The position numbers and the translations under genes were made by a program. Below the pieces are notes generated by a model that saw nothing but the letters and a program-made list of their open reading frames with translations, was not told where the DNA came from and did no database searches. DNA of 64,000 nucleotides. Source: Bryobacteraceae bacterium (GTDB taxonomy: Bacteria; Acidobacteriota; Terriglobia; Bryobacterales; Bryobacteraceae). Each line of letters opens with the position of its first letter. The first letter of the stretch is position 1. The stretch spans positions 1 through 64,000 of the forward strand of contig JAIEMJ010000003.1 of NCBI GenBank assembly GCA_019752335.1, read 5' to 3'. Below are positions 22,919-51,844 of the stretch, piece after piece.

Positions 22919-22959
22919 GGAAGATGTCCCGAGCTTAGTTGAAGGTTAGGACGGCGGGT
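22919..22959 (+). repeat. Left terminal inverted repeat of the IS256 element
   Basis: This pairs with 24328-24368 (38 of 41 positions). Mismatches fall at repeat positions 6, 15 and 16. Confidence 0.9.
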
Positions 22960-23019
22960 GGCAGCCGATTCGATAGAATCCGGTTGCTGAAGACGAATCC
23001 GAACAGGAGACCAACCGCC

Positions 23020-24318
23020 GTGAAGAAACCTTATCACATCGTGACCCGGGCCGACGAGAAGTCGGCCTCCATCATCCAGGAGTTCTGCCAGGCCAATGGC
23101 CAGATCCTACTGCCGCTGGTCGAGCGGATCCAAAGCGCCAGTGAAGCGGTCAATTCGGTTGTGCATGAACTCAGCCATAAGATGCTGGAGACGATTCTGC
23201 GGCTGAGCGCCGAGAACGTCGCCGGCCCACGCACTCCTGGCAAGCCGAGCGGCGATATCCGCTGGTACGGTTCGCAACCAGGGACGGTGGTATTGGCCGA
23301 CCGGAAGGTGAAAGTGCAGCGGCCGCGCCTACGGCACAAGACCGGCGGCGAGGTGCCAGTGCCGGCCTACGAATCGCTCCGTGAGAACAAAGCCCTGGGC
23401 CAGCAAATGCTGGGGACCATCCTGCGCGGCGTCTCCACGCGCGAGTACGACGAAGTGCTCCCCGCCATAGCCTCCACGGTTGGGGTTTCGCGCAGCGCCG
23501 TGAGCCGGCAGGTCATCGAGGCTAGCACCGAGCAGCTCAAACAATTGCAGGAGCGGCGCTGGGACTCGGTCCAGATCCTGGTCATCTACATCGACGGCCA
23601 GCGCTTCGGCGAGCACTTGATCTTGAGCGCGGTAGGGGTAGATGGGGAAGGCAAGAAGCATGTGATGGGCATCACCGCTGGGGCGACCGAGAATGCGGCG
23701 GCCGTCAAGGAATTACTCATTCACCTGCGCGAACACGGCTTGGCTACCGACCGGAAATACTTGTTCGTGATCGACGGCGCCAAGGCTCTGCGTGCCGCCA
23801 TTGAGGAAGTATTCGGAACCGATCAGCCGGTGCAACGTTGCCGCAACCATAAGCTGCGCAACGTGATCGATGAGCTGCCCCGAGAACAGCAGGGACAGAC
23901 ACTGAGCATGATGCGCGCGGCGTTCCGCTGCCGGACCGCCGAGGAAGGTGAGAAGCGGCTCGAGCAACTGGCCCGATTTCTCGAGCACGATCACGAATCG
24001 GCGGCGCGGAGTTTACGCGAAGGCCTGAAGGAGATGTTCACTCTGCAACGGCTCGACATCCCGCCGTCGCTCCACAAATGCCTGGCGACGACCAACATCA
24101 TCGAGAGCCCGCACAGCGGTGTGGAGAATCGCACGCACAAGGTAACCCGGTGGCGCAATCAGGAAATGGTGCACCGTTGGGCCGCTTCGGCTTGGTTGCT
24201 CACCGAACAGCATTTTCGCAAAATCTCCGGTCATCAGGACCTGTGGGCATTGGCCGGGATTCTGGGCCGGCAGACCGGCTTAGAAAAATCAGTTTCCAAA
24301 GTTAGCCAAGTAGCGTAA
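23020..24318 (+). CDS. IS256-family (Mutator-like) transposase
   Basis: The protein starts at GTG 23020 with AGGAGA about 10 nt upstream, giving VKKPYHIVTRADEKSASIIQ and about 432 residues, the usual family length. DDE residues are visible: D in VIYIDGQRFGEH, D in LFVIDGAKALRAAI, and E in CLATTNIIESPHSGVENRTH. The region around CRNHKLRNVIDELP is the family's conserved Cys/His block. Nothing suggests inactivation. Only one copy lies in the window. Confidence 0.95.
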   Translation: MKKPYHIVTRADEKSASIIQEFCQANGQILLPLVERIQSASEAVNSVVHELSHKMLETILRLSAENVAGPRTPGKPSGDIRWYGSQPGTVVLADRKVKVQRPRLRHKTGGEVPVPAYESLRENKALGQQMLGTILRGVSTREYDEVLPAIASTVGVSRSAVSRQVIEASTEQLKQLQERRWDSVQILVIYIDGQRFGEHLILSAVGVDGEGKKHVMGITAGATENAAAVKELLIHLREHGLATDRKYLFVIDGAKALRAAIEEVFGTDQPVQRCRNHKLRNVIDELPREQQGQTLSMMRAAFRCRTAEEGEKRLEQLARFLEHDHESAARSLREGLKEMFTLQRLDIPPSLHKCLATTNIIESPHSGVENRTHKVTRWRNQEMVHRWAASAWLLTEQHFRKISGHQDLWALAGILGRQTGLEKSVSKVSQVA

Positions 24319-26116: not shown

Positions 26117-26866
26117 CTACCGTGTCTGCTGCCAGATGGTGAAAAGCGCCAAAGACCAGTTGATCGCGTAGAGCGTCAGGTTGTACGTGGCATGGACCAT
26201 CGCAGACGCCGCCGTTGACTTACATCGCACGCGGACGATGCCGTAAAGTATGCCAGTTGCTCCAATGCACCAGAATTGCAGCCAACTACCACCGGGCTGC
26301 GCCACATGCGCGATTGAGAACACCCCAGCTGCGATCACGATAACCACGGCGTTGGCGACGGCAGATGAACGGAACCCTCGGAACGCGAACCCCAGGAGGG
26401 CACAGAGGTATCCACGAAAGAAGATTTCTTCAACAACGGGCCCTAGGCTAATTTGGAGAACGATAAGTTTCCAGTCCGTTGCGAGCCTCATGTTGCTTCC
26501 GGCAGCTACGCCTACGCAATAGATCATGCTGCCCATGGCCATACCGAAGACGACGGCCAACGGCCATGTACCGCTCGGCACCACACGCCACGCTGCGAGG
26601 CTGAATCCCATTTCGGTAAGCTTTCCGAGGTTGCGCGCGGCAAACCCAAGAAACGCAACTGTTCCCGCAAGACCGACTACGCCGTTGCGGTTTCCACCAG
26701 CACTCAAAAACTGCCAGCTACCGAGCAGTAGCAGCCAGAACAGTATTTCTTGGTGCCGCCAGTTGCTTGGGTCCCGTCCACCTGTCGTCGACCCGTCCTC
26801 ATTCGCACCCATGGACGCCGGTACTGTTGACCTTTGGTCAGATTCAAATGATCCAGATGATTTCAT
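26117..26866 (-). CDS. CPBP-family intramembrane metalloprotease
   Basis: About 249 residues with multiple hydrophobic helices. The catalytic EEIFFRG motif (about 146-152), a later His in FSIAHVAQPG (about 188) and a third in MVHATYNLTL (about 226) match the CPBP/Abi (CAAX-processing-like) glutamate protease family. In bacteria these process prenylated or peptide substrates or regulate membrane proteins. ATG 26866 is the most likely start; TTG 26872 is possible. It stands alone, divergent from the plus-strand gene at 26989. Its substrate cannot be read from the context. Confidence 0.87.
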   Translation of the reverse strand: MKSSGSFESDQRSTVPASMGANEDGSTTGGRDPSNWRHQEILFWLLLLGSWQFLSAGGNRNGVVGLAGTVAFLGFAARNLGKLTEMGFSLAAWRVVPSGTWPLAVVFGMAMGSMIYCVGVAAGSNMRLATDWKLIVLQISLGPVVEEIFFRGYLCALLGFAFRGFRSSAVANAVVIVIAAGVFSIAHVAQPGGSWLQFWCIGATGILYGIVRVRCKSTAASAMVHATYNLTLYAINWSLALFTIWQQTR

Positions 26867-26988
26867 TGCCAACGTTGCCCTTTTGCGAAAACTCGGCGGC
26901 CGTGAACACTCCAGCGCCCGCTATAGCTGGTAGAGTAAGGAGGCTCTGGCGAGGGTACGCCGGGTGCCTCCCCCGGAAACGGATTGGC

Positions 26989-27960
26989 ATGGCCAAGAGA
27001 GATTTTCAGGAAGTCGTCTCCGCGCTTCGCCGTGACGTGAAACAGCAGGCGCGGCAGCGAGCCCTCATTGCGCCTTGGCACAGAATTGAGGAAGCATCGG
27101 CCTTGTATGTCGATGGGTTGGTTTTTTCTCTGTGGATACGAGCCGTCTGCTCCGTCTGTCCTCGCGTCCCATCGAGCATCCAGACGATGTTGGAGTCCAA
27201 GTGCGCCGGCTTCCTCGATGAAGCTCATGAAGTGTGGCAAGAAGGCCATGTAGCTGTCTGGCGGCGATTGAAGGAATGGATTGAATGCCAGCGCTTTGCG
27301 GATGCGAAGCAGGAGGGCTGGTTTGAAGCAGTTCTCTACTATGCATATCTTGACCTCCGTACGGAGCAAACCTGGCTGCATTGGGATTCCACGATGGAGC
27401 TCTGGCAAAATCAGCCGCCGGCGCGCGTGCCCACGTTCGAAACGTGGCAACGAGAAATTGTCACTCATGCAGCAGCCTTGGACCGCACGGATCTGAAGGG
27501 GGTGGCGCTGCAGCAAGAGACTCAAGTTGAGCGCAAGGTGCTGGCGGCCGCTGCCGATGCCCTGATCGAAGCTCGTGCTCGCGCTCTTTGGATCGCTTGT
27601 TGTTGCAAGCCTGGGCGTGTGCTTCCCAATTGCGTGACCGAGGAACTGGCGCAATCGATCCCGTCGTTGGCAGGTGCTCCGCTCGCTTGGTCCCGATCGC
27701 TGTTCATTCAGGTTGTTCGCCGGGCCGCGGCCCCATGGATCGTTCGAGGACGGAGTGGACGATGGAGTACGGCGCTGTGGTACGACGTTGTCAATCACCC
27801 GCGGTATCATCGGATCGTTCACTATTTCCATAAGTGTGAAGATGAGCGGTTGGCCTCCGGCAGCCAACATTCGACCTCAACTTTTGCCGATTGGCTTAGA
27901 GCCGCCGATGGATTTTGTCTCCTCACCTCCGGCCCCTCCGCCGGTAGCGGCCATTGCTGA
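26989..27960 (+). CDS. Unknown soluble protein of 323 residues
   Basis: ATG 26989 follows a GGAAACGG run. The product begins MAKRDFQEVVSALRRDVKQQ, is rich in Trp, Arg and Ala, and looks mostly helical (HRIEEASALYVDGLVFSLWI, WQEGHVAVWRRLKEWIECQR). There is no signal peptide or membrane segment. I recognise no family. Its last 84 bases overlap the convergent gene ending at 27877. A basic, Trp-rich helical protein could bind nucleic acid, but nothing in the sequence proves it. Confidence 0.55.
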   Translation: MAKRDFQEVVSALRRDVKQQARQRALIAPWHRIEEASALYVDGLVFSLWIRAVCSVCPRVPSSIQTMLESKCAGFLDEAHEVWQEGHVAVWRRLKEWIECQRFADAKQEGWFEAVLYYAYLDLRTEQTWLHWDSTMELWQNQPPARVPTFETWQREIVTHAAALDRTDLKGVALQQETQVERKVLAAAADALIEARARALWIACCCKPGRVLPNCVTEELAQSIPSLAGAPLAWSRSLFIQVVRRAAAPWIVRGRSGRWSTALWYDVVNHPRYHRIVHYFHKCEDERLASGSQHSTSTFADWLRAADGFCLLTSGPSAGSGHC

Positions 27961-28644
27961 TTGCGGTGCAGGCTCGGGATAGCCCATTTCCCGAAGCCAG
28001 TTCCGCATCTCCGGCAGCAGCGTGTCGAAAGGGATCCTGGCCGGATGTTCGCTGAGGAATTTTGTCAGTGAACTTTCTGTGATCCGCCCGCCCTTGGTGA
28101 ACAGAAAGTTCTCTTCCACCCAGTACTGAATTCTGCCCGGCGAGACGAGGAGCATCTCCGCTAGCTCCTTCACCTTGTATCCGCCGAGGCTTTCAGCTTT
28201 GTAGCCAAGATCCCAGAGCCGCTTTCGGACGGCGGCGACGGTACGGCCGAGCCGCCGAGCGATAAGTGAAAGCGAGGCATTACTGTCTATCGACCACAGT
28301 AGTTCGTCAATTTCTGTCTTGGTCCATCTCGGGGGTTTGGGTTTACAGAGACCCAGGGCCGACGCGTGTTTGCGAACAGCCGACCACGACCAGGAAGGTC
28401 GTTCTCGTTTGAGAGCTCGCCGTCCCGCCCGCGGACCACCTTGGGTCCACGCTGTCGTTAGGATGCAATCCAGTTCCGCGGTCCACTGACAGGTGGAACC
28501 ACGTGTACGCGGGCGTCGAGACTTCTGCCCGGCCCCGAGATCCGATCGAGAGAGCGGGAGCGGCAGTTCGCAGGTCTCACCGCGCTGTGCGATGCACGAC
28601 TCTGGGGAGGATGGAGTCACCGATGAGACAACGACTTTTAGCAT
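27877..28644 (-). CDS. Unknown protein with helix-turn-helix-like segments
   Basis: The 255-residue frame from ATG 28644 has a poorly ordered basic N-terminus. A Myb/SANT-like segment follows: PRWTKTEIDELLWSIDSNAS then LSLIARRLGRTVAAVRKRLW. A MerR-like segment comes next: YKVKELAEMLLVSPGRIQYW and VEENFLFTKGGRITESSLTK. The tail is Gly-rich (ATGGGAGGEE). This suggests a DNA-binding protein with two recognition modules. The MerR-like part combined with 'ARRLGRT' repeats is typical of phage- or element-borne regulators. The tail overlaps the opposite-strand gene by 84 bases, an unusual convergent arrangement. Confidence 0.62.
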   Translation of the reverse strand: MLKVVVSSVTPSSPESCIAQRGETCELPLPLSRSDLGAGQKSRRPRTRGSTCQWTAELDCILTTAWTQGGPRAGRRALKRERPSWSWSAVRKHASALGLCKPKPPRWTKTEIDELLWSIDSNASLSLIARRLGRTVAAVRKRLWDLGYKAESLGGYKVKELAEMLLVSPGRIQYWVEENFLFTKGGRITESSLTKFLSEHPARIPFDTLLPEMRNWLREMGYPEPAPQSAMAATGGGAGGEETKSIGGSKPIGKS

Positions 28645-28960
28645 GGGTACCGCCTGGTCAGCTTTACATCGTGTTCGTTCGTCTTCGTCGGTACGGAAAT
28701 ACTGGGTAGACCAGTTCGGCAGCGCTCACCAGTTCCCTACATAAACAACAATCCGGAGCAGCAAAAGGTCTGAACAGTTTTCGTGATCCAGATGCAGTTC
28801 GGTTGACAATCGTCCCCTCGGATCCGGAGGCCAGAGACCATGACCAAAAGATTTTTTCGGACATTTAGCCGTTCTCGATGCTTATGAATAATAGGGGGGA
28901 TGGTATGCTCTTCGCCGCCCTTCTAGCGCGTCGACCAAGGGTCGTCATTGGGGAAGCGGT
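28645..28960. promoter_or_regulatory. Divergent intergenic region upstream of the sigma-CHAT operon
   Basis: No gene is seen in these 316 bases. The region separates the minus-strand HTH gene from the plus-strand sigma gene and must contain both promoters. AT-rich sequence near 28850-28905 (a T-run ending in a TTCGG box and TTATGAATAATAGGGGGGAT) is the likeliest site for the sigma operon promoter. I could not define -35/-10 boxes with confidence. Confidence 0.45.
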
Positions 28961-29611
28961 ATGTCATCCATCGACCACAGCGACCATGATCGATTGGACT
29001 CAGAATCGGTTCCGCCGTTCTGGATCCATGAGGGCGCCCATGGTGACGCTCGCTACGTCGATCCTCTTGTCGTTGCCGCGTCACGGGAGAACTGGTCTTG
29101 GGCGTTCTGGTTGATCCGGAGACAGCTCAATGACGGCGGTCGATTGGGCCAGATTGTCGAGCAAGTTGCGATCGACGTGACCAAGCGCTTGATGTCCGAC
29201 CCACAAGTGGGACTGAACCTTCACGGCTATTTTAGGACGGCCGTCTTACACACAGTCCAGACGATCGCGCTTCGAGAGCGTCGCATCAGCTACGAGGGAG
29301 CATCTCGAGATCTCGAGACGAACCATCACCTGACATCGCCGGATTGGACAAAGGTTTTCGATGACCGTATTACATTGGATGCGCTCGCACCCTTCATGTC
29401 TTACCAAATCCGGCAGATCATGCACTATCGTCAACTTGATTATTCCTGGAAAGATCTCGCCAAGCGACTCGGCATCAGCGAGAAACAGGCCAAATCCCGG
29501 TTCTACTACGGCGTTCGCCAGGCGCATGTTGAGTTGTGCGCCGCCCAACTTCGGCGAGTACACACAGGGCGAGTACACACAGAGGGAGATCGTCGTAATG
29601 GAAACGAATAA
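28961..29611 (+). CDS. ECF-like sigma factor of the CHAT operon
   Basis: The 216-residue product from ATG 28961 has a region-2-like part (ENWSWAFWLIRRQLNDGGRL, FRTAVLHTVQTIALRERRIS) and a region-4-like helix-turn-helix (YSWKDLAKRLGISEKQAKSR, FYYGVRQAH). Between them is a linker with YEGASRDLETNHHLTSPDWT. The protein is close to the one at 48627-49226, which shares WSWA, the linker and the YSWK...KQA.SRFYYG core. Both differ from ordinary ECF factors, so they form a separate small group. The gene overlaps the next one by 14 nt, so the partner protein is probably its regulator. Confidence 0.75.
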   Translation: MSSIDHSDHDRLDSESVPPFWIHEGAHGDARYVDPLVVAASRENWSWAFWLIRRQLNDGGRLGQIVEQVAIDVTKRLMSDPQVGLNLHGYFRTAVLHTVQTIALRERRISYEGASRDLETNHHLTSPDWTKVFDDRITLDALAPFMSYQIRQIMHYRQLDYSWKDLAKRLGISEKQAKSRFYYGVRQAHVELCAAQLRRVHTGRVHTEGDRRNGNE

Positions 29612-30311
29612 CCCTTTGAAGAGTCTTTCCTGGCGCCAGGAAGGGAAGCTTCTGGCCGCCGCGACGGCAATGGCGCGGCAGAACTTTGAGAATCCGGATC
29701 GGAGAGGGTGCCCCTCGCGGAACACTCTGAGGCGTCTGGCGCAGCGAGATCCATCGATAGAAGATGAACCGCAGCTGGTAGACCACGTCGGAACCTGCTC
29801 GCCGTGCTTTGTTGACTACTCCGGATTTCGCGCGGGCTACACGCTTCGACAGCGACTGCGCATCGGCTGCGTCGCTGCCATAGTGCTTGTTGCGTGCCTC
29901 GCCGCTTGGTCCTTCCGCGGGAAGTTCGGCCTTGGACAGCCATCTGGTCCGGAGATTCCCCTGACAGAACGGGGGAAGGTCGTCGCCGCTGTGCTTGACC
30001 TCAGAGCGAAAAGCACTCCGCGCGGACCGGCGAAGGATGCCGAGACCAATGAGTCTCCACGTCTCAAGCGGGCGCGGTTTTTCTTAACGATCCAGTTGCC
30101 AGTAGGTAGCGAGGACGGCAGTTACGATGTCGCGCTAGTGGATGCTTCGGGAACGACCGTCCGACAAACGAGCGGAACTGCCCGGCTAGAAACATTCATA
30201 GAAGTGCTGCAGGTGTCGCTCGACCTAAGCGATTTGCGACCTGGAAGATACACGCTCCGCTACCGACGAGAGCGAGCGCCTTGGAGTGAATATGCAGTCG
30301 TATTGGACTGA
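29598..30311 (+). CDS. Membrane-anchored putative anti-sigma factor with zinc-finger-like segment
   Basis: ATG 29598 lies inside the sigma gene and has AGGGAGA upstream. The 237-residue product has a cytoplasmic part of about 85 residues containing LVDHVGTCSPC, an HxxxCxxC pattern as in zf-HC2 anti-sigma domains. One membrane helix follows (IGCVAAIVLVACLAAWSF, about 92-109), then an extracytoplasmic beta-domain (FFLTIQLPVGSEDGSYDVAL, LRPGRYTLRYRRE). This layout is that of a membrane anti-sigma with a sensor outside. The exposed domain resembles the beta-sandwich domains seen beside CHAT genes, though I cannot name it. Its partner would be the overlapping sigma factor. Confidence 0.72.
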   Translation: METNNPLKSLSWRQEGKLLAAATAMARQNFENPDRRGCPSRNTLRRLAQRDPSIEDEPQLVDHVGTCSPCFVDYSGFRAGYTLRQRLRIGCVAAIVLVACLAAWSFRGKFGLGQPSGPEIPLTERGKVVAAVLDLRAKSTPRGPAKDAETNESPRLKRARFFLTIQLPVGSEDGSYDVALVDASGTTVRQTSGTARLETFIEVLQVSLDLSDLRPGRYTLRYRRERAPWSEYAVVLD

Positions 30312-30325
30312 AGTTGTTTGATGTG

Positions 30326-33052
30326 ATGAGAAAGAAGTCCCAATCACACGCGAGAAAGGTGCCGGAGGAAGCAGCGAGTTCTCCGACGGCCTCGCCAACA
30401 ATGTCGGGTTACGCAAGCGGGATACGCATTTCCGGCCGCAGATTGGGTGGAAGAGTCCTTCTGGCCCTCATGCTACTACTGCTGTTCACATTGCGGAGAC
30501 CGCCGCTGAGAACGGTGGTGAAAGCTGGGCCTCTGGATGAAATTCGACGTCTTGTATGGCTCAACAACTGGACAGACGCCGCGAACCTCGTCGATCAGTT
30601 CCAAGCCTCCCGCGAGTTCGGTCTTTCCGAAGGGGTAAAAACCTTCATTCGAGCTGTTCAGTTGCGCGGCAACATTGAGCGCATTCCCTTGCCGGAAGCG
30701 AAGGAGGGGGTCATTGAACTGCTCGGATCGAAGGGTGCGCAGTCGGATGTGGAGCTACGGATTCTCTTACTGGCAATCAAGGCAGACATTGAGTTCCAAT
30801 ATGACCTTGCTGCCGCAGAAGCCAGCTGGCAAGAGGCGAGGACACTATCAACTTCCGCAGCACTCCCTGTTTGGACATCCCGAGCTGACGGAGAACTTGG
30901 AGCAATCGACTTCTTAAACGGACGCATATTCCGCGCAGTCCGGCGCGTCTCGGTGGGCCTCTTGCAGGCCGAATTTAATGGCGACGTGGCCTCTCAGATT
31001 CGATATCGAACGGCGCTTGGCGAGGGGCTGAACGAGTTTGGCCGGAAAGCGGACGCACTCCGATTCTTCGACAAGGCGCTGGGACTCGCGAACGAGACGC
31101 CAGGCGCGTATTTCCCATTTACTGCTTACCTGGGTAAGGCCAAGCTCCTTGCAACGGACGGATCCCTCGAGGGAATCCGAATGCTGAACCAGGGCCTCAC
31201 CGAAGCGAGGCACCAGGGATACAAGGTTCGTGAAGCGAGAATCCTCACAGTGCTGGGAGAGATCTCCGCCGAATCGCAAAACTACGAAGAGGCTGGCGCT
31301 CGACTGACGGAAGCGGCCAATGTAGCAGGTGGCGCGGGCCTGAATCGGATTGAAGCGGATGCTAGCCGCCTCCTCGCCTCAATCCTGCTGGAACGTGGCG
31401 ACGCATCCGCAGCGATTCCACATGCGAGACGAGCGGTTGCGGCTGCGCACCGAGCCAAAGACGAGTATCACGTACCGGAAGGCCTGGCGATCCTTGGGGA
31501 GAGCGAAGCTCGCGCAGGCAAACTCGAAGCCGCCGAGGCCGCATTTACGCAGGCAAGTGAGATGGTTGATGGCCTCTTGGATGATTTTCCACACCCTCGT
31601 CACAAGAATACCCTTGTTGCCACGATGGGCCGCGTTTTTCAAGGACACTTCGATCTGGCCCTTCGCCAGTTAAAAAATCCGGCAAAGGCGTTTCAGGTTC
31701 TCGAGTCAGCGAAGGCCAGAGGTCTAACAGACCTGCTCCGTGGTACCGGACGCGAGCAAAACCGCGAGTTTCCGTGGAATCAACGGCCAGCGGAAGAGGC
31801 GGCCAAACTCCAGCAGGAACTCGCCTACGAAGAGGACACACGCACGCGGACCCGTCTACTCGATCGGCTGTGGGAATTGGAAGTAAGATCGTTCCAGCTC
31901 CACTCCGAGTCGCCGGGTGGCGACGATACCCGCTCCGCTCACATCACTCTTAGAGCTTTTCAATCCTCCCTCACGAGTGAAGAAGCAGTCCTGGAGTATT
32001 TAGTCGGCGAAGATCGATCTTTCGTACTCCTCATCAGCCGAGAGCTCATCCACTATCGGCTGCTTCCCTCCCGACGAGAACTCGATGCTGCGATCGACGC
32101 CCATCTTGCCGAGGTCGCGGCCGGCCGCAGCGCTCAAGATGAGGCCCGTGCACTGTTTCGCCTCCTCTTCCAACCTGCCGGTGTACTCGGCCGCTTCGAA
32201 AGACTGGTGATCATTCCCGACGGAAGTCTCCATCGCGTGCCTTTTGCAGCGCTCGTTGACAGCGACGGGCGCTATCTGATCGAGTCGCATGTGATCTCGT
32301 ACGCGCCATCGGCAACCGTATACGAGATGTTGTCCCGCCGGTCGCCGAAGATACCCCAGATTGCGCTACTCGCAATAGGCGGTGTGAACTATGGCTCCCC
32401 GCAGGTGAAGGGTGGGCCAGGACGTAGAGGATTCACGCTCTTTGATCCCTCCAGGCCGCCTCACTGGCGCGCCATTCCGCAGTCGTTTTCTGAGGTGACC
32501 GACATTGCCGCAGCGCACCGCGGCCGTAGTACCGTGTTCACTGGCAGCAGCGCAACAGAATCGAACCTCAAGCAACTGGATCTATCGACGTTCGGTGTTC
32601 TTCACTTGGCTGTTCACTCCACGCTCGACCGCGAGTTTCCAGATCGGTCAGCGCTGGTCCTAACGAATCGCCGGGGCGAGAAAGAGGATGGACTGCTCCA
32701 AACTCGGGAGATTCTCGGACTCCGACTGAACTCGGAGCTCGTGACACTGTCTGCTTGCGACGGCGGCGTCGGCCCCATTGAGGGTATAACGGGGGTCAAC
32801 AGCCTGGTCGAGGCATTCTTGATGGCCGGATCGCGCAGCGTCGTAGCGACGATCTGGGATGCGGACGATGTATTCACAGGCGCCCTAATGCGCCGATTCT
32901 ACGCATATCTGGACACCGGAGGCGATAAGGCGGGAGCGTTGGCACTCGCCATGCGCGAACTATTGCAGCGGCACGGTCCCGATGCTGTGCCGTTTTATTG
33001 GGCGGGATTCCGCATTGTTGGAGACGCCCGTGGAACGACAACAGGAGAATAG
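30326..33052 (+). CDS. Membrane-anchored TPR-CHAT caspase-like protease
   Basis: Taken from ATG 30326, about 908 residues. A basic N-terminus and one membrane helix (VLLALMLLLLFTLR) are followed by about 450 residues of TPR-type helical repeats (ALRFFDKALGLANETPGAYF, AREARILTVLGEISAESQNY) and a C-terminal CHAT domain of about 330 residues. The catalytic pair is visible: His in FGVLHLAVHSTLDREF (about 760) and Cys in LVTLSACDGGVGP (about 810). CHAT domains are clan CD Cys proteases related to separase and caspases. In the type III-E CRISPR system a TPR-CHAT protein cleaves a sigma-binding partner. Here it sits 14 nt after a sigma/anti-sigma pair, with no CRISPR genes. Confidence 0.88.
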   Translation: MRKKSQSHARKVPEEAASSPTASPTMSGYASGIRISGRRLGGRVLLALMLLLLFTLRRPPLRTVVKAGPLDEIRRLVWLNNWTDAANLVDQFQASREFGLSEGVKTFIRAVQLRGNIERIPLPEAKEGVIELLGSKGAQSDVELRILLLAIKADIEFQYDLAAAEASWQEARTLSTSAALPVWTSRADGELGAIDFLNGRIFRAVRRVSVGLLQAEFNGDVASQIRYRTALGEGLNEFGRKADALRFFDKALGLANETPGAYFPFTAYLGKAKLLATDGSLEGIRMLNQGLTEARHQGYKVREARILTVLGEISAESQNYEEAGARLTEAANVAGGAGLNRIEADASRLLASILLERGDASAAIPHARRAVAAAHRAKDEYHVPEGLAILGESEARAGKLEAAEAAFTQASEMVDGLLDDFPHPRHKNTLVATMGRVFQGHFDLALRQLKNPAKAFQVLESAKARGLTDLLRGTGREQNREFPWNQRPAEEAAKLQQELAYEEDTRTRTRLLDRLWELEVRSFQLHSESPGGDDTRSAHITLRAFQSSLTSEEAVLEYLVGEDRSFVLLISRELIHYRLLPSRRELDAAIDAHLAEVAAGRSAQDEARALFRLLFQPAGVLGRFERLVIIPDGSLHRVPFAALVDSDGRYLIESHVISYAPSATVYEMLSRRSPKIPQIALLAIGGVNYGSPQVKGGPGRRGFTLFDPSRPPHWRAIPQSFSEVTDIAAAHRGRSTVFTGSSATESNLKQLDLSTFGVLHLAVHSTLDREFPDRSALVLTNRRGEKEDGLLQTREILGLRLNSELVTLSACDGGVGPIEGITGVNSLVEAFLMAGSRSVVATIWDADDVFTGALMRRFYAYLDTGGDKAGALALAMRELLQRHGPDAVPFYWAGFRIVGDARGTTTGE

Positions 33053-33054
33053 CG

Positions 33055-34071
33055 ATGAGTCAACTAAGCGGAGCGCAACGAGACCAGATCGTATCTGCGG
33101 TTCTTGCCACGGTTGAGGCAAAACACTTCAACCATCTTTTCGAGAAGGAACGATGGAGAGCGGCCATTCAACGAGAACGGGCCAGATTGCTCTCCGAATC
33201 GGCGGTAAGCGACTTTGAAGGCATTCTGGACGGCCTGGTTCGATCGTTTGGCGTCCCCGATGCAGGCTTCTTCCATGAACGGGCCCGCAAGAAGATTCCG
33301 AGGGGTGTAGCCGCTCGCTTTCAGTACTGTCAGCCAACCGAATGTGCGCCTTCGATGACTCAGGCGACGGAGGGCGGCGATGTCATGATCACCAAGTTTC
33401 CTGAGAACATCGGCTGGATCAAGGTAACAAAGTTTCCGGGCGCCGTCGGGATTGATATTGCAAAACAGATCGACTCCGGTATCCAGCAGTTGCGCGAATG
33501 CAGACGGATTGTTCTCGATCTGCGCGGGAACGCGGGTGGAGGATTGGCGTTTCTTCGTGTCATGAGCTACCTGACGCCGGAGCGCTTGCCTGTCGGCTAC
33601 AGCGTTACACGCACATGCGCGGAACGCGGGTATTCGAAGGAATCCCTCGCTGCCTTCAACCACATTCCGTCTCATAAATCCGCATTGATCTGGCTGGCCG
33701 TCAAGTTCGGATTCCGGGACGATTCAGTGAAGATCATCACCGAGGGTCTCGGATCCCAGCCGTTTCACGGAAAGATCGTCGTGCTGACCGATGCGACTAC
33801 GACGGGGGCGGGGGAACGAATCGCCGCATTCGCCCGAGAACGGAATCTCGGCTGTATCGTCGGCACTCGGACAGCAGGCCGGCTCATCTGTTGCAGCGTG
33901 TATAAGGTGGGCCAAGGGTACTACGTCCGTGTTCCCGCCAGAGCTTGGTACACGTGGAGCGGCGACCAACTCGAGGGCAGAGGCGTGGAACCCGACTATG
34001 AAGTCACGGACGGAGATGGCACGCGCGACTTTCAACTGGACCGCGCCATCGAGATCGCTCGGGACATGTAG
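33055..34071 (+). CDS. S41 (C-terminal processing) peptidase-like protein, probably inactive
   Basis: ATG 33055 follows AGGAGAAT and lies 2 nt after the CHAT stop. The 338-residue product has an N-terminal helical part (LSGAQRDQIVSAVLATVEAK) and an S41 fold: GWIKVTKFPG, RRIVLDLRGNAGGGLAFLRV, KIVVLTDATTTGAGERIAAF, GCIVGTRTAGR. No PDZ or signal peptide is seen. In active S41 enzymes the nucleophile sits in S-A-(S/G)-E and a Lys follows about 25 residues later. Here the aligned residues are Gly in TTGAGE (about 248) and Arg in TAGR. The catalytic dyad thus appears absent, so it may bind peptides rather than cut them. Confidence 0.75.
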   Translation: MSQLSGAQRDQIVSAVLATVEAKHFNHLFEKERWRAAIQRERARLLSESAVSDFEGILDGLVRSFGVPDAGFFHERARKKIPRGVAARFQYCQPTECAPSMTQATEGGDVMITKFPENIGWIKVTKFPGAVGIDIAKQIDSGIQQLRECRRIVLDLRGNAGGGLAFLRVMSYLTPERLPVGYSVTRTCAERGYSKESLAAFNHIPSHKSALIWLAVKFGFRDDSVKIITEGLGSQPFHGKIVVLTDATTTGAGERIAAFARERNLGCIVGTRTAGRLICCSVYKVGQGYYVRVPARAWYTWSGDQLEGRGVEPDYEVTDGDGTRDFQLDRAIEIARDM

Positions 34072-34143
34072 CCGCTCTAGTTGATTTAATGGGACCGTGA
34101 ACGTCCCCAGATGGAGGCGAATAGAGAACCTCGGAGGTGAATC

Positions 34144-36990
34144 GTGAAGCGACAAGTCTGTGAACTTTTTGCGAGTTTACTCGTTGCCGCGGTCTGTGCG
34201 TTTAGCCAGAGCGCCGCAATCAATGGCGAACTAGCGGGTTTGGTGGTTGACTCGTCTGGAGCGGCCGTTGTCAATGCAGCGGTGCGAGCGACGAATCTCG
34301 ATACGGGATATACGCAGATGGCAACGACTACCGCTGCTGGTCTCTACCGACTGGCAGTACTCCCGCTCGGAAACTATGCGCTGAGGGTCGAAGCCAGCGG
34401 ATTTGCTCGCTATGAGCAGTCTGGCATTATTGTTCGCGCGGGGACAACGCGAACCGTGGATGTACGGATGCAGGTCGCAACTGTCACCGGCGAGATTGAG
34501 GTCACTGCCGACGCGGCCGTGACGGACCCGGCACGGACCGACCAGGGCAATACGTTGTCTCCGAACGCGGTATTAAACCTTCCGCTGGTGTCGCGTAATC
34601 CCTTTAACTTTATCCTGCAGCAACCGAATGTGAGCGGACACCCAAACACTGAATTTGGTGTTCCAAGGAAGGTAAATGCGAATGGCTTCAGCGGTCGCAT
34701 CAACTACCAGCTCGATGGGAGCAGCAACGTCCAGACCGACCGCGCCGGCATTCGGCTCCTTCCCATTTCCCAAACATGGGTGCAGGAAGTTCAGACAATT
34801 AACAACGGGTTCGCGCCGGAGTTCGGGAATACGATTGGAACCTTCTTTAACACCGTCACCCGATCCGGCACTAATGGTCTTCACGGCGAAGGCGCATACT
34901 TCTTCAGAAGAACGCCGATGAGCGCGCGGCCGGCATTGCTGCCCGCGGGGCAGCCGACACCCGAAACCAACGTCGACACCGCGTTCGCGGATGTAGGGGG
35001 CCCGCTGATCAAAGATCGTATGTTTTTATTCTCCGGTTATGAACGCGTGAACCGCGATCTGCCGGCCCCGGTCACCGTATCTCCGGCGGTACTTGCGCAG
35101 TTGGGACTGCCTCGCGACTTCGCGGATGCCATTCCTTTCTCGCAAAAGGTATCGTTCTTTATCGCAAAACTCGACTGGCTACTCACCACCAACCACCGCA
35201 TCGCGATTCGATACAACGGACACCGAAACGATTCACCATTCAATAGTTCGATTATTGGGGGCCAGTATTTACGCGATCGAACGTTTGAGTTTGTCGACCG
35301 CTCACACGGCGGTGCCGTTCAACTTGTGAGTATCATCTCCCCCGGAGTCATCAATGAACTGCGCCTCCAAGTGCCCTTCCGCAGCCAAGCACAGAATCGG
35401 TTCGCCTCCACTGGCAGCGGCCCGGCCATCTCGATACCCGGAATCGCCCACTTTGGTAATTCTCTGGACGTAGGGTTCCGTTTTGAGGAAATGACTCCAG
35501 AACTGAGTGAACACTTGAGCGTGAATACGGCTCGCCACGCCTTGAAGTTCGGCGGTAGTCTTCGCCCCATTCGCGATACGCAAGTTCAACCCTCGGCCGC
35601 ACTCTATACCTTTCCGACAATCGCCGCTTATCAAGCCGCTCGTCAGGGAATCAATCCTCGCGCCTACGCCAGCTTTGTCCAATCGGTTGGAGAGCCTTCC
35701 ATGCGGTACAACTCTCTCTTCGGAGGAGTTTATGCTCAGGACACTTGGAAACCACGCGCGAATGTCACCGTGACGTACGGAGTTCGCTACGATATCTATC
35801 GCCCGCCAACGGCTAACGCGGCGTCACCGTTCGAGTACTCAACGAGCTTTCGAACAGATCGGAACAACATAGCCCCTCGCGTCGGCATCGCCGTTGCGCG
35901 TGGAAAAACTGTTGTGCGCGCGAGCGGCGGAATTTTCTTTGATCCCTTCCAAACCGATCTCTACCGGCGAGCACTGCTGAACAACGGGACACCGGCCTAC
36001 TTCGCGATCGCAGCAACGCCGCAACTTCCGTTCGCTCCACCTTTTCCTACGGTTCTTGCGGGTGTCCCGCCCAGCTTCCCACTCGGGATTCAAGACGTCA
36101 CCACCGTAAGCCCAGACTTCGCCACGCTCTACTCCATCAACTCAACACTTTCGGTCACCCGCGAGATTGCCGCGGATCTTGTGTTCAGTGCAACGTATCT
36201 ATTTACCCGCGGAAACCGGCTGCCGGTTTTTCGCAATATCAATCTCGTTCCTTCGGGGCAAGTCCTTCCCGATGGCCGACCTGTATTTGGGTCCGCACGC
36301 CTCTTTCCCGGCTTTGCAAACATTCTTGCTGCGGAGTCCGTGGGGCAGTCCACCTATAACGGACTGACCTTTATGCTGACGCGGCGATTCTCATCGGGTT
36401 TCGAGCTCCTCGGCACCTATACGTGGTCGCACGCCATTGACGATGCCCCCGAGCAGAACAACATCGACAGTCCGAATTTCCTCCCTTCGGACCCCACCAA
36501 CCGGCGGCGGGACCGAGGCAATTCACTGAGCGATCGACGGCATGTCTTCAACGGCAACCTGGTTTACGCGCCCACTTTCAGCTCCGGCAATCGAGCCATG
36601 CGGTATCTCCTGAATGGCAACCGGCTCGCCATCATCGCCCGGATTCAAAGCGGGGATGTGTTCAATATGGGGAGCAATCGCATTTTGAACGGTGATGCAT
36701 CTACAGGAAGCACCTTCCAACGGCCGCTGTTCGTTGGCCGCAATACCTTGCGGGCGCCGCGCACCTCGGAATTCAATATCCGCTACACCCGAATCATTCC
36801 GCTTGGCGAGCGGATGCGCTTCGAACTGATCGCCGAGTCGACAAATGTGTTCAATCGGACGAATGTCGTTGGCGTGAATTCAACTGCTATCGTGGATCCC
36901 CTCGGAAACATCCTTGCCTGGCCAACATTGGACTGGACTGCCGCCCTCGATCAGCGGCTAGTGCAACTGGGCGTTAGGTTCAGCTTTTGA
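34144..36990 (+). CDS. TonB-dependent receptor with carboxypeptidase-regulatory-like N-terminal domain
   Basis: A GTG start at 34144 with GGAGGTGA upstream gives MKRQVCELFASLLVAAVCAF (signal peptide) and 948 residues. A CarboxypepD_reg-like domain (about 26-110: NGELAGLVVDSSGAAVVNAA) precedes the plug and a large barrel ending in LDQRLVQLGVRFSF with a terminal Phe. Receptors of this type are numerous in Acidobacteriota and carry oligosaccharides or other large substrates; no classic SusD partner is adjacent. It follows the S41-like gene by 73 nt on the same strand and may belong to the sigma-CHAT operon. That would make it the possible output or sensor. Confidence 0.87.
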   Translation: MKRQVCELFASLLVAAVCAFSQSAAINGELAGLVVDSSGAAVVNAAVRATNLDTGYTQMATTTAAGLYRLAVLPLGNYALRVEASGFARYEQSGIIVRAGTTRTVDVRMQVATVTGEIEVTADAAVTDPARTDQGNTLSPNAVLNLPLVSRNPFNFILQQPNVSGHPNTEFGVPRKVNANGFSGRINYQLDGSSNVQTDRAGIRLLPISQTWVQEVQTINNGFAPEFGNTIGTFFNTVTRSGTNGLHGEGAYFFRRTPMSARPALLPAGQPTPETNVDTAFADVGGPLIKDRMFLFSGYERVNRDLPAPVTVSPAVLAQLGLPRDFADAIPFSQKVSFFIAKLDWLLTTNHRIAIRYNGHRNDSPFNSSIIGGQYLRDRTFEFVDRSHGGAVQLVSIISPGVINELRLQVPFRSQAQNRFASTGSGPAISIPGIAHFGNSLDVGFRFEEMTPELSEHLSVNTARHALKFGGSLRPIRDTQVQPSAALYTFPTIAAYQAARQGINPRAYASFVQSVGEPSMRYNSLFGGVYAQDTWKPRANVTVTYGVRYDIYRPPTANAASPFEYSTSFRTDRNNIAPRVGIAVARGKTVVRASGGIFFDPFQTDLYRRALLNNGTPAYFAIAATPQLPFAPPFPTVLAGVPPSFPLGIQDVTTVSPDFATLYSINSTLSVTREIAADLVFSATYLFTRGNRLPVFRNINLVPSGQVLPDGRPVFGSARLFPGFANILAAESVGQSTYNGLTFMLTRRFSSGFELLGTYTWSHAIDDAPEQNNIDSPNFLPSDPTNRRRDRGNSLSDRRHVFNGNLVYAPTFSSGNRAMRYLLNGNRLAIIARIQSGDVFNMGSNRILNGDASTGSTFQRPLFVGRNTLRAPRTSEFNIRYTRIIPLGERMRFELIAESTNVFNRTNVVGVNSTAIVDPLGNILAWPTLDWTAALDQRLVQLGVRFSF

Positions 36991-42796: not shown

Positions 42797-43456
42797 TCAG
42801 GGCACCATCGACTCGGCCATTGGCAAAAAGAGCCCGACTCTGGACGCCGACGCGACCACTGGACATCCTGCGCCCGGTGCGAGGACTAAAGAAGCAAAGG
42901 AGCCGGTGACACCGGCAGGCAGTGCAGGATTGACGTTGGGATTAATCGCCGCTGCAGCAATGGGCGTCAGAAGGTTTTGCGTAATCGCCTGGCAGGCAAT
43001 TGGATAGTCCCGGATCACTACTTGCAGAGTAGTCAGCTTGCCCTTTTGTGCTTCCGTGAGCATGTTTTGAATGGATGCAGCCGTTCTGGCCCGCTCCGCG
43101 TCGATATCACGACGAATCTGTTCGATTTCGGCATATCGTGCACCAATCGCAATTGGGTCGAGACTCGGACGACGCATTTCTTGAGCGAGTTCCACCTGAA
43201 GCTGGATTTGCCTCTGAGCCTTCGTTCCCAGGAGTTGCGTCAGTTGTTGGTTCAATGCATTGATCTGCGATGCCTGGGCGTCGGAAAGCCCTAAATATCC
43301 TTGGAGGGCGGCAGGAAGCTGCGGCCCTGCCGGGATGCTAGGGCTTGGCAAGCCAGGATTCTGGGCAGATCCTGTGGAGAACGTTAGAATCGCAAGCGCG
43401 AGCGAGAGGGCCAGCCGCACGAAAGAACTCATAGGTTTTGGGGATTCATCTTTCAT
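42797..43456 (-). CDS. Periplasmic Spy/LTXXQ-like protein of the ECF operon
   Basis: Taken from ATG 43456 (a second ATG at 43432 gives a cleaner signal peptide, MSSFVRLALSLALAILTFST). The mature part is helical with a Spy-like core (YLGLSDAQASQINALNQQLT, EMRRPSLDPIAIGARYAEIE, MLTEAQKGKLTTLQ), in which the last piece is the family's L-T-x-x-Q-like box. An unusual tail rich in Ala/Pro/Asn follows, with two Cys (about 165-220). Spy/CpxP-type proteins act as periplasmic chaperones or sensors in envelope stress. Co-location with an ECF sigma and its anti-sigma supports that. It lies about 200 nt past the anti-sigma gene. Confidence 0.75.
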   Translation of the reverse strand: MKDESPKPMSSFVRLALSLALAILTFSTGSAQNPGLPSPSIPAGPQLPAALQGYLGLSDAQASQINALNQQLTQLLGTKAQRQIQLQVELAQEMRRPSLDPIAIGARYAEIEQIRRDIDAERARTAASIQNMLTEAQKGKLTTLQVVIRDYPIACQAITQNLLTPIAAAAINPNVNPALPAGVTGSFASLVLAPGAGCPVVASASRVGLFLPMAESMVP

Positions 43457-43660
43457 CCAAAGTCTAATAAGATTAGGTGCTCGCCGCTGGTAGAATCCGG
43501 GAGAAAAGTGCGGTTTCCATGTGAGGGGTGCTGATCGGAAAACCGAACCCTGTTTCACGGTCCCGGTATCAATCCAGGGGCAGGGGCAAAAATCGCCACC
43601 CATTCTTATGCGGTCGCTGGCACCGGGGAGCGCCGACGAGGCATAACAGGGTTCTCAGTG

Positions 43661-45340
43661 TCAGCGCCGTTGCACGCGCAACGGAGCCACGGCGGATTGG
43701 AGCGCCCCCAGGGCACTCCCTAGTTCCGCTGATTCATCCTTAATTCCTGCAGTTGGTGCTAGCGTAGCCGCCAGGACTCGGTCAAATCGCTGCCCCGCCG
43801 CAAGAACGTTCTGCGCGGCTAACTGCCAAGACTCCGGGTTTGAAGATTGAGCAACCCTGACCGGCACGCCGAGTTTCTCGAGAACCGGAGAGAGGAAACT
43901 CTGAATTTGATCCTCCGCTCGGGAAACCTCCCTTGCGTGGTCCTGCCGGATCTGCTCTAGCAGCATCTTGTCGTCGGGGACGAACTGTCGTTCGACGTCC
44001 GCCGGGAATCGGTCGCCGAGTTGCCAAAGCGCATGGGCTCGGACCAGGAGCGTCTCGGTCAGACGCAGCAAGGAGTTCGAGAAGGCCTCCATGGCGGCGG
44101 GACCGCCGACTTGGTCCTCGATCTTTTTCCCAAACGCCAAGGGCCCGGGCCGCTCGGTGAGTGGTTCTCCCAGCTGGAGCCTGACCGACCCAGGCGGCGG
44201 TGGTTTCAAGAATTCGGCGTTGACGTGGGCGAGCCCTCCCATTGCTGCCGCGATTTCTGCCTGACGTTCCGCCTTGATGCCTATACCCGAGACAACAATC
44301 CGCGAATTCTCTCGCCTAATGTTTAGCGAGTCGTTGACGTCGGCACCGATACGGTGTAAAGCAGCCAGAACGTGGAGTTCATCGGCGGAGCCCAAGAGGA
44401 CTTCGGGCTGCGATTCGGACTTAGCCTGTACCGAGGGGCGAGCCGTTTCGGCCAAACGGGGAGGCTGACGGGGGGATGCGATCTGCGCCGGGGCCGTGGT
44501 TTCAGAGATCTCTACCTCGTCTCCGTCTCGAAAATGGAACTCACATCGAATGGGATGCAAGTCAGATTTCCGGAGAACCAGAGTGACCCCACCCAATGTG
44601 CCGCCGGTTGTCGAAGTCTGCACCGCAACGAGCTCCCGCGCGTTTTCATCAATGCTCGTTGAGAGAGTGTCGTGTTTATCCGGAAGCCCCTTCCTCCAAT
44701 CCGAGAAAGACGTGGCGCTTAGCGGTGTTAACCAGTTGTACCGAGCGGATTGGAATTGCGCTTCCAAGCGATTTGCCGTTGCCGCGAAAGCAGCGGGAAC
44801 AACCTCGCCGGCACCTTCGGATAAATCCCCTCGCCGGCTGAACTCACCCTCGCGGCTCTTCACTCGAATCCGAGCATCTGCACCAACTGCTACCGGCATC
44901 GCCCGCTCCTGCCGCACCGCTTTTTCGATCAGCTCTGCCGCCCGGGCTGACTGAGACTGGGGAATATAGAGGAGCGCCGCGGCGCTGACAATGAGCGTTG
45001 CCGCGGCCGTCGCCGCCAATCTTGGCTTACGAAGAAGCGACATCACCCAAGTGGGCCACGAGGGCGCTACCGGGGATCGATGTTCGTTGCGGATCCGAGC
45101 AAAGTCGCTTGAGAGGTCTTGCCAATCCTTCGGTGGGGGAGGAATGCTTGGATGTAGCAGATCCCGTCGATAGTGAATGTAGCGGCCGATCACACTGGTC
45201 GTATCTTCGGCCTCCGTTCGGCATTCCCAGCAATTCTCAAGATGACGGGCGACACGGGCGGACTCACGCGCCGACAATTCGCCATTGGAGTATCGAATCA
45301 GTTCATCCGGATCGGGATGTTCGTTTTGCCAGTTACCCAT
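43661..45340 (-). CDS. zf-HC2 anti-sigma factor with large periplasmic domain
   Basis: The 559-residue protein starts at ATG 45340. Its N-terminal anti-sigma domain has RHLENCWECRTEAE (H..NCxxC), the zinc-binding core of zf-HC2 anti-sigma factors. A single membrane helix (PRLAATAAATLIVSAAALLY, about 105-127) is followed by about 430 residues of periplasmic sequence, which begins with an outer-membrane-lipoprotein-like beta region and ends in helical segments (FSNSLLRLTETLLVRAHALW). It overlaps the upstream ECF gene by 8 nt, so the pair is clearly cognate. The large exterior part would sense envelope signals. Confidence 0.87.
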   Translation of the reverse strand: MGNWQNEHPDPDELIRYSNGELSARESARVARHLENCWECRTEAEDTTSVIGRYIHYRRDLLHPSIPPPPKDWQDLSSDFARIRNEHRSPVAPSWPTWVMSLLRKPRLAATAAATLIVSAAALLYIPQSQSARAAELIEKAVRQERAMPVAVGADARIRVKSREGEFSRRGDLSEGAGEVVPAAFAATANRLEAQFQSARYNWLTPLSATSFSDWRKGLPDKHDTLSTSIDENARELVAVQTSTTGGTLGGVTLVLRKSDLHPIRCEFHFRDGDEVEISETTAPAQIASPRQPPRLAETARPSVQAKSESQPEVLLGSADELHVLAALHRIGADVNDSLNIRRENSRIVVSGIGIKAERQAEIAAAMGGLAHVNAEFLKPPPPGSVRLQLGEPLTERPGPLAFGKKIEDQVGGPAAMEAFSNSLLRLTETLLVRAHALWQLGDRFPADVERQFVPDDKMLLEQIRQDHAREVSRAEDQIQSFLSPVLEKLGVPVRVAQSSNPESWQLAAQNVLAAGQRFDRVLAATLAPTAGIKDESAELGSALGALQSAVAPLRVQRR

Positions 45341-51788: not shown

Positions 51789-51844
51789 AAATGCCTCTGG
51801 TGATTTCGTAAGAGCTAAGGAAAGGACACACGTACCGTGTGGGA

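What the first reader, a model, noticed from the sequence alone, without database searches (positions are those of the whole stretch)
28961..36990. Sigma/anti-sigma/TPR-CHAT/S41-like operon: candidate protease-controlled transcription switch
Five genes in tight order (14-nt overlap, then gaps of 14, 2 and 73 nt) join a diverged sigma factor, a membrane protein with a zinc-finger-like HxxxCxxC, a membrane-anchored TPR-CHAT protease, a probably inactive S41 protein and a TonB-dependent receptor. A TPR-CHAT protease acting on a sigma-linked partner is known from type III-E CRISPR systems, but no CRISPR gene lies here. By inference, the CHAT enzyme could cut the anti-sigma to release the sigma factor, with the S41-like protein as peptide binder and the receptor as input or output. 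The combination may be a new regulatory or defence system.
Basis: partly seen in the sequence, partly recalled or inferred. Interest (0 to 1): 0.78.

Follow-up and report, generated by a model that had tools for sequence, protein, structure and literature searches.

The report
Caspase-like protease beside sigma/anti-sigma pair
A soil bacterium carries a small, repeatedly conserved gene set in which an apparently exported caspase-like protease sits beside a membrane-held gene switch (a sigma factor and its inhibitor), suggesting that the protease flips the switch by cutting the inhibitor at one invariant spot; this can be tested directly.

Summary
The operon is real and conserved, with one correction. 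ECF-like sigma, zinc-finger membrane anti-sigma, TPR-CHAT protease (apparently exported) and an S41 protein form a four-gene module in Acidobacteriota; the TonB receptor does not belong (Oar-like genes 1.18 vs 1.28 per 100 kb). Of 28 CHAT loci, 25 have the S41 gene and 21 the anti-sigma. In reverse, 26 of 27 S41 homologues adjoin such a CHAT; of 16 new S41 loci from a phylum-wide draw, 12 have it. CHAT His and Cys are kept in 44 of 44. The S41 serine is kept in 41 of 44, but the window copy has lost Ser, Ser-His and part of the PDZ, so it is probably dead. The anti-sigma has a Cys-His-Cys-Cys motif, one membrane helix and a beta-sandwich; an Arg just outside the membrane is invariant (34 of 34) and is my candidate cleavage site. 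The nearest solved relative of both anti-sigma head and CHAT domain is apparently one protein, Myxococcus DdvA, where they are fused. This looks like a split DdvA-type switch plus an S41 partner: a new variant of a known kind. Cleavage is inferred.

The parts
28961..29611 (+). Diverged ECF-type sigma factor (216 aa)
   Evidence: Family profile A1 (18 sequences) hits solved ECF sigmas over regions 2-4, best SigL 3.2e-15; 12 of 18 members hit Sigma70_r4_2 at E 0.1 or better; window copy alone only E 0.01
29598..30311 (+). Membrane anti-sigma (237 aa): C-H-C-C zinc-finger-like head, one TM helix, seven-strand beta-sandwich
   Evidence: Zinc ligands kept in 35 (Cys38) and 37 (His63, Cys67, Cys70) of 38, four of the 38 from S41-less CHAT loci; TM in 21 of 21; AF2 model pLDDT 70.8, pTM 0.40 from 4 sequences; 2 of 21 members hit zf-HC2, best 6.4e-10; weak hit to DdvA
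30021..30026 (+). Candidate scissile site Arg142-Gly143 of the anti-sigma, in a low-confidence loop just past the membrane helix
   Evidence: Arg in 34 of 34 core anti-sigmas, followed by Gly 27, Ser 6, Lys 1; also in 4 from S41-less loci and 19 further ones added to the alignment; cleavage is inference
30326..33052 (+). TPR-CHAT protease (908 aa), apparently exported or membrane-anchored
   Evidence: CHAT 3.6e-61; His and Cys in 44 of 44; N-terminal hydrophobic segment at residues 40-56
33055..34071 (+). S41-family protein, degenerate in this copy (Ser, Ser-His and part of PDZ lost), no N-terminal hydrophobic segment
   Evidence: PF03572 1.2e-24; catalytic columns; PDZ gap; no such segment in 25 of 25 S41s scanned
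28840..28960 (+). Upstream block shared with the two sigma genes nearest in sequence; possible promoter
   Evidence: Alignment of three upstream regions; a strict pattern from it finds only this site in the own genome; function not shown
27877..28644 (-). HTH protein, divergent from sigma; recurrent neighbour of part of the modules
   Evidence: In 13 of 44 module loci, 0 of 50 other CHAT loci, 0 of 76 other S41 loci; also found without the module
26965..27960 (+). ~300-aa protein of unknown family, convergent with the HTH gene
   Evidence: In 11 of 44 module loci, 0 of 126 control loci; no Pfam match in any of 11 members at E 0.1; also found without the module

Best explanation
The four genes encode a proteolytic transcription switch. 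The anti-sigma holds the ECF sigma on the inner face of the membrane through its zinc-finger head (inferred from the motif). The TPR-CHAT protein is exported or anchored on the outer face; on a signal read by its TPR part it cuts the anti-sigma just outside the membrane, most likely after the invariant Arg142 (inferred). An intramembrane M50 protease then completes release (inferred; M50 genes exist in the genome). The S41 protein, which has no signal-like segment, acts in the cytoplasm, most simply by clearing the freed anti-sigma fragment (inferred); in the window copy it is probably catalytically dead and either a binder or decaying. Shown here: conservation, linkage, sequence motifs, retained CHAT dyad, S41 residue loss. 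Inferred: location, cleavage, order of steps, signal, regulon.
For: Linkage: 25 of 28 CHAT loci have S41 on the same strand, 21 of 28 the anti-sigma; 26 of 27 S41 homologues adjoin a clade CHAT (places compared); 12 of 16 new loci in a phylum draw have one in the fetched stretch. The S41 is co-directional with CHAT in most lineages and with sigma/anti-sigma but not CHAT in L208-L212, so the four behave as one unit. CHAT dyad 44 of 44. Hydropathy: anti-sigma TM 21 of 21, S41 0 of 25, CHAT N-terminal segment 18 of 29, read by eye as often ending in an A-x-A-like site. Arg142 is 34 of 34 in a low-confidence loop past the membrane helix and is also aligned in anti-sigmas beside S41-less CHATs. DdvA, apparently the nearest solved relative of both parts, joins them in one chain. 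Six M50 matches in five frames of the genome. Pairwise distances of CHAT and anti-sigma correlate, r 0.81, n 33, 0 of 2000 permutations as high.
Against: No cleavage is shown anywhere here. In 9 of the 19 CHAT-set loci with both S41 and anti-sigma, CHAT-S41 and sigma-anti face each other as separate units, which also fits the protease being an output of the sigma. Arg142 could be a structural residue: the model rests on 4 sequences, and anti-sigmas without a CHAT neighbour were not examined. Export of CHAT rests on hydropathy and reading by eye, no signal-peptide predictor: at the cut-off 18 of 29 pass (4 of the 11 failures are frames without their N-terminus), and 1 of 20 sigmas passes too. 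Distance correlation may reflect shared species history. Loss of the S41 serine in three loci shows that this step is not always needed. For Csx30 the authors note that the N-terminal part is enough to bind the sigma, so a cut alone need not free it (PMC10028731, passage).
Confidence: 0.5

Rival explanations
1. CHAT and S41 are the output, not the input: the sigma/anti-sigma pair senses the signal by itself and drives transcription of an exported protease (an effector against an invader, a competitor or damaged envelope protein) and a cytoplasmic S41 protein.
For: In 9 of 19 CHAT-set loci with S41 and anti-sigma the two units face each other (L041, L045, L046, L047, L049, L055, L056, L063, L066), as also in L202, L207, L213 and L215. 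The anti-sigma has its own beta-sandwich that could be a sensor.
Against: In the other 10 of 19 they are co-directional, and in L208-L212 the S41 goes with sigma/anti-sigma while CHAT is apart. An invariant Arg in the anti-sigma loop is not expected of a free sensor. In DdvA the CHAT part belongs to the anti-sigma itself.
Confidence: 0.3
2. CHAT is a non-cleaving sensor: its TPR part binds the anti-sigma periplasmic domain and, on signal, exposes it to a housekeeping site-1 protease such as a DegS-like enzyme.
For: TPR repeats are binding modules, and TPR proteins partner S41 proteases in CtpA-LbcA and Prc-NlpI (entry titles; biology recalled).
Against: The His-Cys dyad is kept in 44 of 44 members while S41 residues are lost in several: a strong sign that CHAT catalysis is needed.
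Confidence: 0.12
3. Chance adjacency of unrelated genes, or a decaying operon.
For: The window S41 is degenerate and the sigma is diverged.
Against: Repeated co-occurrence in both directions and beyond the class.
Confidence: 0.03

Closest known systems
DdvS-DdvA of Myxococcus xanthus (ECF sigma and anti-sigma; PDB 8rlz, and by identical letters 8rot/8rw5)
   Same: A zinc-finger-like anti-sigma head, a hydrophobic stretch and a CHAT domain with His and Cys at the aligned places. 8rot is the only distinct PDB sequence that the window CHAT domain hits with phmmer at E 10 or better (E 0.003); the anti-sigma profile hits the same chain and 8rlz weakly (E 0.084 and 0.1). That an anti-sigma/ECF pair regulates a CBASS-CRISPR island is the title of a paper seen in a reference list.
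   Different: In 8rot both parts are one chain of 991 aa; here they are two genes, the anti-sigma has its own beta-sandwich, and an S41 gene is added. The DdvA structure paper is not held; that it proposes autoproteolysis followed by RseP is recalled, not read.
CASP / Craspase (type III-E CRISPR: Csx29, Csx30, CASP-sigma; PMC10028731, passages seen)
   Same: A TPR-CHAT protease next to an ECF-like sigma and its inhibitor; Csx29 cuts Csx30, which inhibits CASP-sigma (passages).
   Different: The anti-sigma here is a membrane zinc-finger protein and CHAT appears exported. CHAT scores 21.5 bits against a 300-bit cut-off for Csx29. No repeat array in the window; no Cas7-11 or Csx30/31 model among hits of the window frames scanned (not all frames).
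RseA / DegS / RseP regulated intramembrane proteolysis
   Same: Membrane anti-sigma cut first by an outer protease, then by RseP and ClpXP (as described in PMC10028731 passages).
   Different: The site-1 enzyme would be a dedicated caspase-like protease.
ECF54 sigma group
   Same: Genetic context with CHAT, carboxypeptidase and subtilase proteins (one sentence of PMC8999054).
   Different: [quoted passage not shown] membership could not be tested (no ECF group models at hand).

Membership tests
DdvA-type anti-sigma | C-H-C-C zinc-finger head and one TM helix | tested here: met
   Ligands in 35 of 38 (Cys38) and 37 of 38 (His63, Cys67, Cys70); TM in 21 of 21. That DdvA is of C-H-C-C type is recalled
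DdvA-type anti-sigma | Anti-sigma head and CHAT domain in one polypeptide | tested here: not met
   Separate genes in the window and in the 21 CHAT-set loci where both were found
DdvA-type anti-sigma | CHAT domain on the outer side of the membrane | tested here: inconclusive
   Hydropathy and A-x-A-like sites; no dedicated predictor or experiment
Type III-E CRISPR CASP (Csx29) | Csx29 family score over curated cut-off | tested here: not met
   21.5 bits against 300
Type III-E CRISPR CASP (Csx29) | CRISPR repeat array nearby | tested here: not met
   No direct-repeat family of 23 nt or more (seed 18) with copies within 2 kb in the 64-kb window
Type III-E CRISPR CASP (Csx29) | Cas7-11, Csx30 and Csx31 genes nearby | not tested
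   No dedicated search; only part of the window frames were scanned with Pfam or NCBIfam
zf-HC2 anti-sigma (PF13490) | Pfam match | tested here: inconclusive
   2 of 21 members match at E 0.1 or better, best 6.4e-10; the window copy does not
S41 C-terminal processing peptidase (Ser-Lys dyad) | Catalytic Ser | tested here: met
   Family 41 of 44 with letters there; window copy not (Gly) (after removing L098 and L111)
S41 C-terminal processing peptidase (Ser-Lys dyad) | General-base Lys | tested here: not met
   Lys in 4 of 44; Arg in 29 (same removal)
Tricorn/IRBP-like S41 | Ser-His, Ser and Glu of the tricorn active site | tested here: inconclusive
   Family Ser-His 39 of 44, Ser 41 of 44, Glu 43 of 44; offsets of the match ranges place Ser near 965 and Glu near 1023 of tricorn (my arithmetic; residue roles recalled; no residue alignment to tricorn printed)
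ECF sigma factor | Regions 2 and 4 | tested here: met
   Family profile against solved ECF sigmas, 3.2e-15, positions 41-185 of 198; window copy alone is below Pfam cut-offs
ECF54 | Group-specific sigma sequence | not testable with these tools
   No ECF group models available
Catalogued anti-phage defence system | PADLOC match | tested here: not met
   Six window proteins scanned; only a weak hit of the HTH protein (mad1, E 0.0023)

The most novel reading that the evidence does not exclude
A mobile, two-sided protease switch: a caspase-like CHAT enzyme acts in trans as the outer (site-1) protease on a membrane anti-sigma at a conserved Arg, and a tricorn-like S41 enzyme without signal peptide finishes the job inside; the set travels on integrase-bearing elements and turns on a defence or element-encoded regulon. 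The wider sigma/anti-sigma/CHAT trio would then be a common, unrecognised class of signalling in Acidobacteriota.
Probability: 0.25. Interest if true: 0.8.

Novelty: new variant of a known kind. Interest (0 to 1): 0.62.

Why it matters
CHAT proteases have been tied to sigma-factor control in a CRISPR system and, by sequence, in one myxobacterial protein. A conserved split version with a single invariant candidate cut site would give a simple two-protein assay for how caspase-like enzymes control transcription, outside CRISPR. It would also suggest a role for some of the many CHAT genes of Acidobacteriota: 20 of 40 other CHAT loci sampled have a sigma or anti-sigma homologue close by.

Tried and rejected
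TonB receptor as part of the system: rejected; Oar-like ORFs are as dense around modules (8 in 678 kb, 43 loci, window not counted) as around other CHAT genes (7 in 548 kb, 50 loci), and the own genome has at least 65 such genes (65 of 154 candidates were scored).

CRISPR type III-E membership: rejected. Defence catalogue: no match of note.

Regulon by promoter pattern: the strict pattern taken from three upstream regions hits only its own site in the genome; this says little.

Structure neighbours of the anti-sigma beta-sandwich: many Ig-like or macroglobulin-like domains at Z about 7 to 9, no specific relative. DdvA was not in the rows shown; that is no evidence against.

Plasmids: tblastn of the CHAT protein finds 190 plasmid records with a match, none covering 80% of it; not followed.

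Integrase enrichment (profile matches in 13 of 44 module loci against 0 of 50 and 1 of 76): kept as a hint only. Three of the five seeds came from module loci; only the five seeds were confirmed by Pfam; some of the 13 are short or odd frames; and fetched stretches differ in length (mostly 5-12 kb for the 40 other-CHAT loci against up to 18 kb).

HTH and 300-aa neighbours as a fixed part of the module: not upheld. I fetched six loci because their 300-aa hit was not at a known module (L222-L227): none shows sigma, anti-sigma, CHAT or S41 in the stretch, and two (L222, L226) show an integrase.

L205 and L206 (S41 hits without CHAT) are weak members (2e-58, 3e-33); in L203 and L204 the S41 hit lies at or near a contig end; all four are counted as misses in 12 of 16. 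L159 is an S41 fragment among genes that look by eye like transposon genes.

The search for related loci with the S41 alignment returned 80 loci, of which 4 (L079-L082) are the family; L079 is the same locus as L046 and was dropped before the counts. L082 has CHAT and S41 but no sigma or anti-sigma hit in 20 kb. The other 76, mostly from other phyla, served as controls. L098 and L111 (ordinary Ctp-like proteins) passed a loose cut-off and were removed by hand from the S41 counts given here.

Literature: searches listed no paper that I recognised as an account of this four-gene set; I saw listings and, for six papers, passages. Most subscription papers are not held, so this is no proof of absence.
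Full report
OBSERVATION. Domain calls agree: CHAT 3.6e-61 with TPR, S41 1.2e-24, outer-membrane barrel 5e-96. The sigma and anti-sigma are hard to recognise alone but clearer as families: the sigma profile matches solved ECF sigmas over regions 2 to 4, and two of 21 anti-sigmas hit zf-HC2 (best 6.4e-10).

CONSERVATION. A search of 151 related genomes with the CHAT protein (list of matches cut) gave a set of long orthologues; I fetched 28 loci of that set and 10 more distant CHAT loci. In 25 of the 28 an S41-family gene lies on the same strand as CHAT, with gaps or overlaps from -137 to +35 nt (longest-frame starts); of the other three, L065 ends at a contig edge and L048 and L053 lack it in 18 kb. 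The anti-sigma is found in 21 of 28 and a sigma in 21 of 28. The seven without anti-sigma are L043, L057, L059, L064, L065, L067 and L068, several of them short contigs; for L057 and L059 a family sigma/anti-sigma pair lies on the same contig, about 8 and 14 kb from the S41. Order and orientation vary: sigma-anti-CHAT-S41 as in the window, sigma-anti-S41-CHAT (L042, L044, L052), or CHAT-S41 facing sigma-anti (9 of the 19 with both S41 and anti-sigma).

REVERSE TESTS. The S41 profile against the same 151 genomes gives 27 hits at E 1e-30 or better; 26 adjoin a clade CHAT and the last is a fragment among what look like mobile genes. Most of these S41s were in the profile, so I also used a draw of 396 genomes of the phylum: 20 hits, 16 of them new loci. 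Of these 16, 12 have a clade CHAT in the fetched stretch (from a 223-nt overlap to 3.2 kb away, strand varying) and 10 have sigma and anti-sigma. In five of them (L208-L212) the S41 is co-directional with sigma/anti-sigma and CHAT faces it, so the S41 goes with either half. The anti-sigma profile gives 29 strong hits in the 151 genomes (E below 1e-44); 21 are in the window or fetched module loci, two more sit beside a CHAT (L220, L221), three share a contig with a module at 8 to 16 kb, and three are on contigs or contig ends without CHAT in view (L217, L218, L219).

WIDER CONTEXT. Of 40 CHAT genes outside the S41 clade, taken mostly in order of score from the list, 20 have a sigma or anti-sigma homologue in stretches of 5 to 12 kb (15 a sigma); among 76 unrelated S41 loci, mostly of other phyla, 4 have a sigma. 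At the own-genome density of 65 sigma region-4 matches in 7.2 Mb, about 4 would be expected in the 40. Some of these CHATs begin with a lipoprotein-type signal read by eye (L166, L173, L197). So the trio sigma/anti-sigma/CHAT seems broader, and the S41 version one branch.

RESIDUES. CHAT His and Cys: 44 of 44, one frame a locus, window included. S41, after removing two ordinary Ctp-like proteins and setting gaps aside: nucleophile Ser 41 of 44, Ser-His 39 of 44, Glu 43 of 44, Lys 4 of 44. Offsets of the tricorn match place Ser and Glu near tricorn 965 and 1023, its active-site residues as I recall them; fold comparison of an intact member (L079) puts it nearest to Ctp/D1-type and other S41 folds, with IRBP and then tricorn lower. 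The window S41 has Gly for Ser, has lost Ser-His, and lacks some 60 residues of the PDZ region. L042, L044 and L052 have also lost Ser-His but keep Ser; L067 and L215 have Gly for Ser. Loss in several S41s and none in CHAT suggests that CHAT catalysis is the core.

TOPOLOGY. All 21 anti-sigmas scanned have one strong hydrophobic segment; no S41 of 25 has one in its first 130 residues; 18 of 29 CHATs pass the same cut-off, as does 1 of 20 sigmas, a soluble control. Of the 11 CHATs that fail, four are frames without their N-terminus, and the others show a weaker segment, some with a signal-peptide-like end by eye. I read this as CHAT outside, S41 inside, anti-sigma spanning. The anti-sigma model (4 sequences, mean pLDDT 70.8) has a helical head, a long membrane helix and seven strands, with low-confidence stretches at 110-126 and 139-150.

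CANDIDATE SITE. In the second of these, Arg142 is the same in 34 of 34 core anti-sigmas, followed by Gly (27), Ser (6) or Lys (1); the zinc ligands stand at 35 to 37 of 38. It is also Arg in four anti-sigmas from S41-less loci already in the alignment and in 19 further sequences added to it, 12 of them from S41-less CHAT loci, where the aligner may have helped. Arg at P1 is known for separase and other clan CD enzymes (recalled). I propose it as the cut site; a structural role is the main alternative.

COMPARISON. phmmer of the window CHAT domain against the PDB returns one distinct sequence, 8rot (E 0.003); the anti-sigma profile hits 8rot and 8rlz at E about 0.1, with the same letters aligned in both. 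8rlz is named anti-sigma factor DdvA, 8rot CHAT domain-containing protein; that 8rot is DdvA is my inference from the shared letters. The scores are weak one by one; it is their meeting in one protein that counts. PMC4374960 (passages) says that DdvS becomes active when DdvA is inactivated and that the signal is unknown; the later DdvA papers are not held. The Csx29-Csx30 work (PMC10028731, passages) reports a TPR-CHAT protease relieving an ECF-type sigma by cutting its inhibitor. These make the proposed mechanism plausible, not shown.

MOBILITY. The distribution is patchy (21 of 151 relatives, 19 of 396 in the phylum draw), genomes can hold several diverged copies (own genome two; G031, rated 10% contaminated, four), and integrase-profile matches are near 13 of 44 modules (with the bias told above). 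Transfer by mobile elements is likely but not proven. Base composition of the window shows no step at the module.

VERDICT. Real, conserved and mechanistically suggestive; a new variant of CHAT-linked sigma control. Interest 0.62.

Noticed in passing
27877-28644 (-) and 26965-27960 (+): Two further conserved neighbours, an HTH protein and a ~300-aa protein without any Pfam match; one or both are in 14 of 44 module loci, and they also occur without the module, in two of six such loci near an integrase.
   Followed up: partly
42800-45944 (-): A second ECF sigma (45336-45944), a 559-aa protein with a weak zf-HC2 match (43664-45340) and a Metal_resist-like protein (42800-43603): an ordinary-looking ECF operon some 9 kb from the module.
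   Followed up: no
50146-54184 (-): Siphovirus Gp157, HD/OB and helicase genes in a row, which may be part of an integrated element; by eye, OB-type and helicase-type frames also lie beside CHAT in L043.
   Followed up: no
22939-24318 (+): Mutator-family transposase upstream of the module.
   Followed up: no
26117-26872 (-): CPBP (Rce1-like) intramembrane protease near the module; whether it recurs in relatives was not tested.
   Followed up: no
L161, L166, L171, L173, L197: Other CHAT genes near a sigma homologue; L166, L173 and L197 CHATs start with a lipoprotein-type signal by eye, and L161 and L171 have a different zinc-finger protein in between, with an Arg-Gly after its hydrophobic segment.
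   Followed up: partly
G000:C26 (L056): The same genome has a second module whose S41 keeps Ser-His, Ser, Lys and Glu and whose sigma is only 8% identical to the window's.
   Followed up: partly
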